Origin: Okeania sp. SIO1I7
Lineage (GTDB): Bacteria; Cyanobacteriota; Cyanobacteriia; Cyanobacteriales; Microcoleaceae
Length of the DNA stretch: 64,000 bases
NCBI GenBank assembly: GCA_010672585.1
Contig: JAAHGF010000003.1
Location: 248,001 to 312,000, forward strand
Direction of reading: 5' to 3'
Below the pieces are notes generated by a model, which searched no databases, was not told where the DNA came from, and was given only the letters and a program-made list of their open reading frames with translations. This document shows positions 8,840-39,972 of this stretch, in pieces. Positions within the stretch are counted from its first letter, which is position 1. Every line of letters starts with the position of its first letter. A program made the translations under genes and the position numbers.

Positions 8840-8847
8840 TTTTTATC

Positions 8848-9017
8848 GGGTGCATCTCATATTTGCAAAAATACTATTTTCCTATATATTCCCTGTTGCC
8901 TGTTGCCTGTTGCCTCTCTTGGTCAGCATTCCCTTGCGTCTGACGCCGACGCGGGGTCTGACCGCTGTTGCCTAAAAGCGGTAAACTTTTGGCTTTATTC
9001 AAAATTGAGATGCACCG
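8848..9017. mobile_element. MITE-like element, copy A, with 8-bp target duplication
   Basis: The terminal inverted repeats are GGTGCATCTCA (8849-8859) and TGAGATGCACC (9006-9016). The directly flanking octamers TTTTTATC (8840-8847) and TTTTTATC (9018-9025) are identical, as a target-site duplication should be. The interior has no transposase and carries CCTGTTGCCTGTTGCCTG heptamers, a GTCTGACGC palindromic segment and TTTTGGCTTTATTCAAAA. Copy B at 39591-39702 shares both ends and the interior. The right target duplication contains the stop codon of the neighbouring flavoenzyme gene. Confidence 0.85.
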
Positions 9018-9020
9018 TTT

Positions 9021-10133
9021 TTATCTTTGCCAAAGTTTTCGTAAAGCAGAACCTACCACATCCGAATAACGCAATTCTCCAGACAAAATTTTAGTCATAA
9101 TAGTAGTAGCGCGAGGTCGTTTCACACCTACTTGATAACCAATATGTGAAAAGTGAGAAAATCCTTGGGCTAAACGTTGTGCCCAAACCATATCTTTACC
9201 CCATTCTTGATTAATTATTTGACTGTATTTTTCTAAAGCAAATAAATCACCATTTAGAGAATTATTAATTGCTGTTGCTGCTTTAATACCTGTAAATATA
9301 GAAGGGCGAATTCCTTCGGCAGTAAAAGGGTCAACAATACAAGCTGCTTCTCCTGCTAAAACAGCATTTTGTGTATGTAATTTTTGATTGCCATTCCACA
9401 AACATAAAGGATGACCAAATTTCTGAACATTTTGAATATCTACTTCAAACAGAGTGGCATATTCTGTTAATAAAGCTGCAAAATTTTGACCATGTTTTCG
9501 CCAAAATGTACCTACTCCTATTGAATATCCATCAGCTTTAGGAAAGTTCCAAACATAGCCATTATTTAACATTCCAAACTCAAAATAAGCACTATCAATT
9601 TGCTGATTTTTAATTGGTACTTCTATTTCCATCGCCCCACCAGCAAAACGTTTACGATTGTTAAAACCCAACCATTTTGCCATGGAACCTTTAGCACCAT
9701 CAGCAGCAATTAAATAACGACCAATAAATGATTGATTATTGATATTAACTTGCCAGTTATTATTCTTAAATTCTATGCCTATAACTTTAGTTTTATCCCT
9801 AATTTCTGCTCCCTGTTTTTGCGCTTGCTGAACGATAAAATAATCAAAAACTTCTCTACGTACCATCCAAATAGGTTCTTGATTTTTCAGGTTAACTTCT
9901 ACTAAATCGCCCTTTTTCCAAGTATAACGAATGGAATTTATTTTCAGAGAAATAGCAGGTGAAAAATCAAAATCAAACCACTGTTGAACAATAGGAGAAA
10001 CTCCACCTCCACAGGGTTTATATCGAGGTAAAGATTCTTTTTCTAAGACTAATACAGAACGTCCTTTTTTTGCTAGATGATATGCGGCACTTGCTCCTGC
10101 TGGTCCGGAGCCAACTATGATACAATCAAACAT
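9021..10133 (-). CDS. Geranylgeranyl reductase family FAD-dependent oxidoreductase
   Basis: 370 residues. The N-terminal Rossmann fold shows GSGPAG (8-13) with the ribose-binding E31, then RYKPCGGGVSP (37-47), a hallmark of the geranylgeranyl reductase family. AADGAKG (143-149) and GEAACIVDPFTAEGI (261-275) are the second and third FAD motifs. The family saturates isoprenoid double bonds; ChlP acts on the geranylgeranyl chain of chlorophyll and phytyl diphosphate. This protein is shorter and more divergent than ChlP, so I call it a paralogue, with an isoprenoid lipid or quinone tail as possible substrate. Its stop codon lies inside the target duplication of the adjacent MITE, so transcripts probably run into that element. 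Confidence 0.88.
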   Translation of the reverse strand: MFDCIIVGSGPAGASAAYHLAKKGRSVLVLEKESLPRYKPCGGGVSPIVQQWFDFDFSPAISLKINSIRYTWKKGDLVEVNLKNQEPIWMVRREVFDYFIVQQAQKQGAEIRDKTKVIGIEFKNNNWQVNINNQSFIGRYLIAADGAKGSMAKWLGFNNRKRFAGGAMEIEVPIKNQQIDSAYFEFGMLNNGYVWNFPKADGYSIGVGTFWRKHGQNFAALLTEYATLFEVDIQNVQKFGHPLCLWNGNQKLHTQNAVLAGEAACIVDPFTAEGIRPSIFTGIKAATAINNSLNGDLFALEKYSQIINQEWGKDMVWAQRLAQGFSHFSHIGYQVGVKRPRATTIMTKILSGELRYSDVVGSALRKLWQR

Positions 10134-39551: not shown

Positions 39552-39590
39552 GTTGCCCCCCTCTATCTATAAAAAGGAGGGGAAATAAAG

Positions 39591-39702
39591 GGGTGCATCT
39601 CATATATACAAAAATACTTTTTTCCTATATATTCCCTGTTCCCTGTTCCCTGTTCCCTAAAAGCGATAAATTTTTGGCTTGATTCAAAATTGAGATGCAC
39701 CC
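39591..39702. mobile_element. MITE-like element, copy B, with 8-bp target duplication
   Basis: The ends GGTGCATCTCA (39592-39602) and TGAGATGCACC (39691-39701) are the same as in copy A. The flanking octamers AAATAAAG (39583-39590) and AAATAAAG (39703-39710) are identical. The interior has CCTATATATTCCCTGTTCC, TTCCCTGTTCCCTAAAAGCG and TTTTGGCTTGATTCAAAA. It is 58 bp shorter than copy A, which carries an extra GC-rich segment. No coding capacity. Confidence 0.87.
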
Positions 39703-39723
39703 AAATAAAGAATTAGAATTACT

Positions 39724-39972
39724 TTAAGTAGGGATAAGTTCACCTGGTCTTAGTTTTGCCCATTTGCCTATTTCTTCTTTAAAACTTTCACAACCAACAA
39801 CATCCCACTCCATTTCAATTTCATTATTTTGAGGACGAATGTTAACATTGATTGTAGGTTCAACCGGTTCAAAGTCTGGATTTTCTGTTAAATGAAGTTG
39901 TTCGTGCTGAGTTTCTACAGCATGATAGGTGACACACTGGTCTACATAGTGGCAGTTAACACAAATACACAT
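39724..39972 (-). CDS. ycf34: Ycf34 family protein
   Basis: 82 residues, nearly the standard length. The N-terminus MCICVNCHYVDQCVTYHAVE and the later HLTENPDFEP, INVNI, EWDVVGCESF and GKWAKLRPGELIP match the Ycf34 family of cyanobacteria and red-algal plastids. Cysteines 2, 4, 7, 13 and 61 are present; a Synechocystis homologue binds an iron-sulfur cluster and affects photosynthesis-related proteins and RNA (literature recollection). It lies just upstream of, and divergent from, the CCA-adding enzyme gene. The MITE copy B ends 22 bp from its stop codon. Confidence 0.95.
   Translation of the reverse strand: MCICVNCHYVDQCVTYHAVETQHEQLHLTENPDFEPVEPTINVNIRPQNNEIEMEWDVVGCESFKEEIGKWAKLRPGELIPT

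What the first reader, a model, noticed from the sequence alone, without database searches (positions are those of the whole stretch)
8840..9025. MITE family with 11-bp terminal repeats and perfect 8-bp target duplications (copy A)
GGTGCATCTCA and TGAGATGCACC bound a 170-bp element lying between two identical TTTTTATC octamers. Copy B at 39583-39710 has the same ends and a different perfect octamer (AAATAAAG). Two independent insertions with intact 8-bp duplications imply true transposition by a trans-acting transposase with 8-bp target cuts. The element has no coding capacity and is not annotated by gene callers. Matching ends with matching duplications in two copies cannot easily be chance.
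Basis: partly seen in the sequence, partly recalled or inferred. Interest (0 to 1): 0.78.

Follow-up and report, generated by a model that had tools for sequence, protein, structure and literature searches.

The report
Orphan ISKra4-type miniature transposon family
The two repeats in this marine cyanobacterial genome are copies of a real small jumping-DNA family of a well-known general kind; its likely transposase was not detected in this genome but was found, on elements with the same ends, in other cyanobacteria.

Summary
Copies A (8848-9017, 170 bp) and B (39591-39702, 112 bp) share inverted ends (consensus GGGTGCATCTCA, 12 bp) and lie between perfect but different octamers. Of 45 distinct window-genome copies, 27 have perfect 8-bp duplications and 37 at most one mismatch; permuted partners give 0.6 perfect on average. 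With 66 copies from Okeania contigs it is 78 of 111. Sites with a single octamer exist for both copies: exact in G003, one base different in G001 and G004. One further own copy is absent from an Okeania sp. SIO2B3 contig that shows one octamer. A 1226-1227 bp IS with identical 12-bp ends and 8-bp duplications occurs in G031, a genome of another family; it encodes an ISKra4-family transposase with the two-frame layout of the ISMich2 group. The searches found no such transposase in the window genome; of four congeners one has a short relic, and G021 has a damaged element with these ends. So this is a MITE family of ISKra4/ISMich2 type, apparently without an intact partner here, with heptamer repeats and sometimes nested modules in its middle: a new member of a known kind.

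The parts
8840..8847 (.). left target duplication of copy A, TTTTTATC
   Evidence: single copy in the empty site of G003
8848..9017 (+). copy A of the MITE (170 bp)
8848..8859 (+). left terminal inverted repeat GGGTGCATCTCA
8892..8915 (.). heptamer tandem tract (CCTGTTG, 3.4 copies) in copy A
8915..8965 (+). 51-bp GC-rich REP-like module between TTGCC and TGTTGCC in copy A; similar modules lie in other copies
   Evidence: boundaries read by eye
9006..9017 (-). right terminal inverted repeat (11 of 12; outermost base G instead of C)
9018..9025 (.). right target duplication of copy A; overlaps the stop codon (9021-9023) of the ORF 9021-10133 on the minus strand
39583..39590 (.). left target duplication of copy B, AAATAAAG
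   Evidence: single copy in the empty site of G003
39591..39702 (+). copy B of the MITE (112 bp)
39591..39602 (+). left terminal inverted repeat of copy B, 12/12
39632..39658 (.). heptamer tract (CCCTGTT) in copy B, boundaries read by eye
39691..39702 (-). right terminal inverted repeat of copy B, 12/12
39703..39710 (.). right target duplication of copy B

Best explanation
Copies A and B belong to a non-autonomous insertion-sequence family, a MITE, with 12-bp ends GGGTGCATCTCA. A DDE transposase of the ISKra4 family (ISMich2 type), supplied in trans, most likely recognises the ends, moves the element and makes cuts staggered by 8 bp in A+T-rich, mostly intergenic DNA; repair leaves the 8-bp duplications. 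Shown: the ends, the exact 8-bp duplications, sites with a single octamer, differences in occupancy between related genomes, and an IS with identical 12-bp ends and 8-bp duplications that encodes an ISKra4 transposase in another cyanobacterial family. Inferred: that a transposase of this group moved the Okeania copies; that it has been lost from, or was only transiently in, the window genome's lineage; and the reaction chemistry, which is taken from general knowledge of DDE transposases.
For: Duplications: 27 of 45 own and 78 of 111 total perfect at 8 bp, permutation means 0.63 and 0.78. Single-octamer sites: for copy B, G003 has one AAATAAAG, G001 and G004 one AAATCAAG; for copy A, G003 has one TTTTTATC, G001 and G004 one TTTTCATC. 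The own copy at L031:575-688 is absent from L129 (Okeania sp. SIO2B3), which has a single ATATTTTG; L045 and L021 have looser cases. Partner IS: 13 copies of 1226-1227 bp examined in G031 have exact 12-bp ends; 11 of 13 have a perfect 8-bp duplication, the other two form a tandem pair whose outer octamers match. One frame of its transposase scores 225.5 bits against NF033572 (ISKra4), cut-off 205. The copy L149 has two overlapping ORFs in a -1 relation with a run of seven T in the overlap. A damaged element in G021 has these ends (12/12 and 11/12) and ISKra4 fragments. Annotated ISKra4 elements have similar ends: Oscillatoria (ISOni1 family) GGGTGCATCTCACTTTTGC; Microcystis GGGAGCATCTCAC with a perfect 8-bp duplication.
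Against: No ISKra4 transposase was detected in the window genome (family model, protein search), so the donor was not observed; draft assemblies can lack IS copies. Beyond the ends I saw no similarity between the MITE interior and the G031, G021 or G013 elements, so it is not shown to be an internal deletion of one. Nine of 111 copies have three or more mismatches between flanking octamers. The DNA upstream of copy A differs among relatives, so its empty sites rest on a short left context plus a long right flank; G010, G016, G021 (copy A) and G010, G011 (copy B) gave no readable left side. Of seven annotated ISKra4 elements inspected, two showed no convincing ends and one no duplication.
Confidence: 0.92

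Rival explanations
1. It is a MITE, but moved by a transposase of another IS family with similar ends and an 8-bp duplication.
For: No ISKra4 transposase was detected in the window genome. Several IS families make 8-bp duplications (recalled). Other transposase families were not searched for in the window genome.
Against: The 12-bp end is identical to that of an ISKra4-encoding IS in G031 and close to those of annotated ISKra4 elements of Oscillatoria, Microcystis and Kovacikia. A damaged element with these ends in G021 carries ISKra4 fragments.
Confidence: 0.06
2. It is a palindromic interspersed repeat spread by recombination or conversion rather than transposition; the octamers are accidental in A+T-rich DNA.
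For: Flanks are A+T-rich (70%). Some copies lie in local tandem duplications or in other repeats. The orthologous copy B in G002 differs by a block next to the left end, which suggests conversion.
Against: Perfect octamers are about 100 times more frequent than in permuted pairs, none is longer than 8 bp, and they occur once at the empty sites.
Confidence: 0.01
3. The element is kept mainly for a host function, such as a transcribed hairpin near gene ends, with transposition incidental.
For: Four folds of three elements (both strands of B, and two other copies) were more stable than all 200 shuffles (z -3.9 to -4.7). Few sites lie in long reading frames: 4 of 50 against 655 of 1000 random positions. 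Copy A abuts the stop codon of an ORF.
Against: The folds are mostly the inverted ends, which transposition needs anyway. No Rfam match around copy A (copy B was not searched). Occupancy differs between relatives. Intergenic bias is expected from selection against gene disruption.
Confidence: 0.03

Closest known systems
ISMich2 group of the ISKra4 family (p-MULT 4, Mutator superfamily), e.g. the ISOni1-family element of Oscillatoria nigro-viridis PCC 7112
   Same: Similar ends (GGG[T/A]GCATC...), 8-9 bp duplications, and in the G031 element a transposase in two frames with a -1 relation (group described in PMC3942029, passages read).
   Different: The Okeania element encodes no transposase, 89 of 111 copies are 95-142 bp, and resemblance to these IS was seen only at the ends. 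For the ISMic1-family element inspected (L214) no such ends were found. That the ISOni1 family belongs to the ISMich2 group was not tested.
Nezha, a MITE of cyanobacteria (Zhou et al. 2008)
   Same: Both are cyanobacterial MITEs.
   Different: I saw only its title in a reference list; ends and duplications were not compared.
BrickBuilt of Porphyromonas gingivalis (PMC4596501, passages read)
   Same: A MITE with a tandem-repeat array inside.
   Different: Its array has a 23-nt unit, and the duplications that 3 of 4 intact copies carry differ in length; here the unit is a heptamer and the duplication length is regular.

Membership tests
MITE (general) | short element without transposase gene, terminal inverted repeats | tested here: met
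   95-882 bp in own genome, 35 of 45 within 95-142 bp; by ORF length no transposase gene in A, B or the 882-bp copy
MITE (general) | target duplications of constant length, and empty sites | tested here: met
   9 of 111 copies have three or more octamer mismatches
MITE (general) | multiple dispersed copies | tested here: met
   45 distinct copies in G000; 241 exact 12-mers in G001
ISKra4 family, ISMich2 group (as source of the transposase) | an IS with the same ends encodes an ISKra4 transposase | tested here: met
   G031 element: NF033572, 225.5 bits, cut-off 205
ISKra4 family, ISMich2 group (as source of the transposase) | transposase in two ORFs with a -1 frameshift | tested here: met
   L149: ORFs at 400-609 and 510-1460 in -1 relation, run of seven T from 560. 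The one-base-shorter copy L148 departs from this layout. Frameshifting itself was not tested, nor was a phylogeny made.
ISKra4 family, ISMich2 group (as source of the transposase) | 8-bp duplication | tested here: met
   11 of 13 G031 copies and the Microcystis element L213; L215 and L218 read as 9 bp, L217 has none
ISKra4 family, ISMich2 group (as source of the transposase) | a partner transposase in the same genome | tested here: not met
   0 matches in G000, a draft assembly
ISKra4 family, ISMich2 group (as source of the transposase) | the transposase mobilises the element in trans | not testable with these tools
   needs an experiment

The most novel reading that the evidence does not exclude
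An orphan MITE family has spread through several Okeania lineages using transposases that come and go by horizontal transfer. The 12-bp end shared by ISMich2-type IS of several cyanobacterial families acts as a common currency, so that a lineage's MITEs stay mobilisable after their own IS has decayed. The unconstrained middle is meanwhile colonised by heptamer arrays and second-order small repeats.
Probability: 0.3. Interest if true: 0.45.

Novelty: new member of a known kind. Interest (0 to 1): 0.3.

Why it matters
It explains a repeat family with dozens of copies in this genome and, by 12-mer count, probably over a hundred in one relative. It ties the family to a defined transposase group and gives ready-made occupied and empty sites in related genomes. 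The wider point is modest: a MITE family whose insertions differ between close relatives, with no transposase detected in the genome, is a test case for whether orphan MITEs depend on transposases that arrive from outside.

Tried and rejected
The autonomous partner was sought first inside the window genome. By ORF length the 882-bp copy (L033) and the 2563-bp end pair (L031) hold no transposase; the latter is two MITEs around other sequence. Of 27 solo ends in own and Okeania loci, judged by eye, most are decayed or interrupted MITEs or matches in coding DNA; L030, L056 and L060 have other interiors and stayed unexplained. The one-mismatch end search listed only part of its matches, and the BLAST searches with the composed MITE scored only 40 or 22 candidates per genome, so copy numbers are lower bounds. 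A guess from memory that the family was ISKra4 was tested with NF033572; nothing matched in G000-G004, and G021 matched. The intact partner came from the end-pattern search of 23 relatives, whose listing was also capped. Exact-pattern search of viral contigs (22-mer, 0 matches) and a plasmid search with copy B (no match) found no carriers.

Literature: the end sequence as text is in 51 papers, of which 20 titles were shown; none of those 20 is about cyanobacteria or transposons. 'ISKra4' with 'miniature inverted' gave 2 papers and ISMich2/ISOni1/ISMic1 gave 1; neither listing reports this family. Searches were looked at as listings. Passages were read in PMC10969869, PMC4596501, PMC3942029, PMC9208149 and PMC2246112; no paper was read whole.

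Counts: 46 copies and 45 differ in how duplicates were merged. Both leave out pairs with more than 2 mismatches in the two ends together, or outside 80-900 bp. Copies were merged when a 45-base junction was identical, so orthologues with changed flanks may count twice, and two own copies come from one tandem duplication (L059). In the frame test, 8 of 111 copies had too little flank and many own copies had only about 200 bp, so 11 of 103 is biased low; the fair comparison is 4 of 50. The junction search also listed many matches inside other repeats; besides copy B only L031, L045 and L021 were inspected.

Full report
What is there. Copy A occupies 8848-9017 between two TTTTTATC octamers and copy B 39591-39702 between two AAATAAAG octamers. 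The exact 11-bp end occurs only at these four places in the window. The window genome (G000, 9.48 Mb, 109 contigs) has 69 exact copies of the 12-mer GGGTGCATCTCA, the reversed control 0.

The family. Pairing ends with at most 2 mismatches in both together gave 46 copies, 45 after other merging. Of these 45, 35 are 95-142 bp. In the listed copies the ends and their neighbourhoods are well conserved, while the middle is a tract of CCCTGTT/GCCTGTT heptamers of variable number, in some copies interrupted by short modules or, as in copy A, by a 51-bp GC-rich module. By ORF length neither A, B nor the 882-bp copy holds a transposase gene. An exact 26-base left-end pattern was found in 84 stretches of public genome contigs, all 84 labelled Okeania.

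Transposition. Of 45 own copies 27 have a perfect 8-bp duplication and 37 at most one mismatch; of 66 copies from the Okeania contigs 51 and 63; together 78 and 100 of 111. Permuting partners gives 0.78 perfect on average, maximum 5. None has an exact duplication of 9-11 bp. Perfect octamers are 86% A+T against 70% in the flanks. Nine of 111 have three or more mismatches. Three copies match at 5-7 bp without a perfect octamer.

Empty sites. At copy B, G003 reads through with a single AAATAAAG, and G001 and G004 with AAATCAAG; G002 carries the insertion. At copy A, G003 has a single TTTTTATC and G001 and G004 TTTTCATC, next to a conserved right flank; G002 carries the insertion, 99% identical over 1301 bases. 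The DNA upstream of copy A differs among G001, G003 and G004, so the left side of that comparison is short. The more distant genomes gave no readable left side at these sites. A further own copy (L031:575-688) is missing from the corresponding SIO2B3 sequence L129, which has a single ATATTTTG.

Where it lands. In Okeania loci with 1 kb on both sides a frame of 100 codons or more spans the joined site in 4 of 50 cases, against 655 of 1000 random positions; over all testable copies, many with short flanks, it is 11 of 103. The right duplication of copy A overlaps the stop codon of the ORF 9021-10133 on the minus strand. Copy B ends 21 bases short of the end of the ORF 39724-39972, minus strand. 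These ORFs were not searched against any library.

The partner. The end pattern in 23 genomes showed many pairs 1.2 kb apart in G031, a single-contig genome of the same order but another family. Thirteen copies of this 1226-1227 bp IS were examined: all have exact 12-bp ends, 11 have perfect 8-bp duplications, and two form a tandem dimer with matching outer octamers. One frame (323 aa, from L148) matches NCBIfam ISKra4 with 225.5 bits, cut-off 205. Copy L149 has two overlapping ORFs in a -1 relation with a run of seven T in the overlap. Two ORFs joined by a -1 frameshift are described as a feature of the ISMich2 group (PMC3942029, passages). Short elements with the same ends and perfect 8-bp duplications also occur in G031, G030 and G014 (one examined in each).

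Annotated relatives. Seven ISKra4-type elements on cyanobacterial plasmids were inspected. Oscillatoria, Microcystis, Kovacikia, Dolichospermum and Nostoc TCL26-01 have ends of the type GGG[T/A]GCATC. Microcystis has a perfect 8-bp duplication, Oscillatoria and Nostoc read as 9 bp, Kovacikia as 8 bp with a one-base asymmetry, Dolichospermum has none. For Gloeothece and Allocoleopsis (ISMic1 family) no convincing ends were found.

Orphan status. The ISKra4 model found nothing in G000-G004, G016 or G011. In G021 it found fragments inside a 1288-bp element with these ends (12/12 and 11/12; flanking octamers differ at 4 of 8). With the G031 protein, G000, G002, G003 and G004 gave nothing and G001 one 56-residue stretch with two stops. 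G021 is another genus by the tool's labels, but by contig matches it is probably the record labelled Okeania sp. SIO2F4. So a same-ended ISKra4 element did exist close to this lineage and has decayed there. The assemblies are drafts, and a copy lost in gaps is not excluded.

Verdict. It is a new family of a known kind with ISKra4/ISMich2-type ends; the unusual points are the undetected partner and the crowded middle.

Noticed in passing
L154 (G031:C1:2902297-2905358) and L156 (G031:C1:4005188-4008238): Two IS copies 8 bp apart in tandem. In L156 all three octamers are CAATTTGA; in L154 the spacer is its reverse complement and the outer octamers are AAGTCGAA, as if the dimer of L156 had transposed as one unit.
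   Followed up: partly
window 8915-8965; also L039, L011, L025, L037, L009: A GC-rich REP-like module, and shorter modules such as AGATGAGC and TTTCGGAGC, sit between TTGCC and TGTTGCC in heptamer tracts. Of 36 occurrences matched by the pattern, 24 lie in scored MITE copies; the other 12 may be outside the family or in unscored copies.
   Followed up: partly
window 39591-39620 against L200 (G002): The orthologous copy B differs by a block beside the left end (TATATAC against TAGCAAGC), a variant seen in other copies; perhaps conversion between copies or a template switch.
   Followed up: no
L059 (G000:C88:392102-393490): MITE copies at a 389-bp spacing, three in a row, suggesting a tandemly repeated unit.
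   Followed up: no
L097 (Okeania sp. SIO2B3): Three head-to-tail copies of the left part of the MITE alone.
   Followed up: no
L165-L167 (G005, another genus of the family): 49 exact 12-mers in a 3-Mb, 55% complete genome, with MITE-like elements of partly different interior; perhaps a related family.
   Followed up: no
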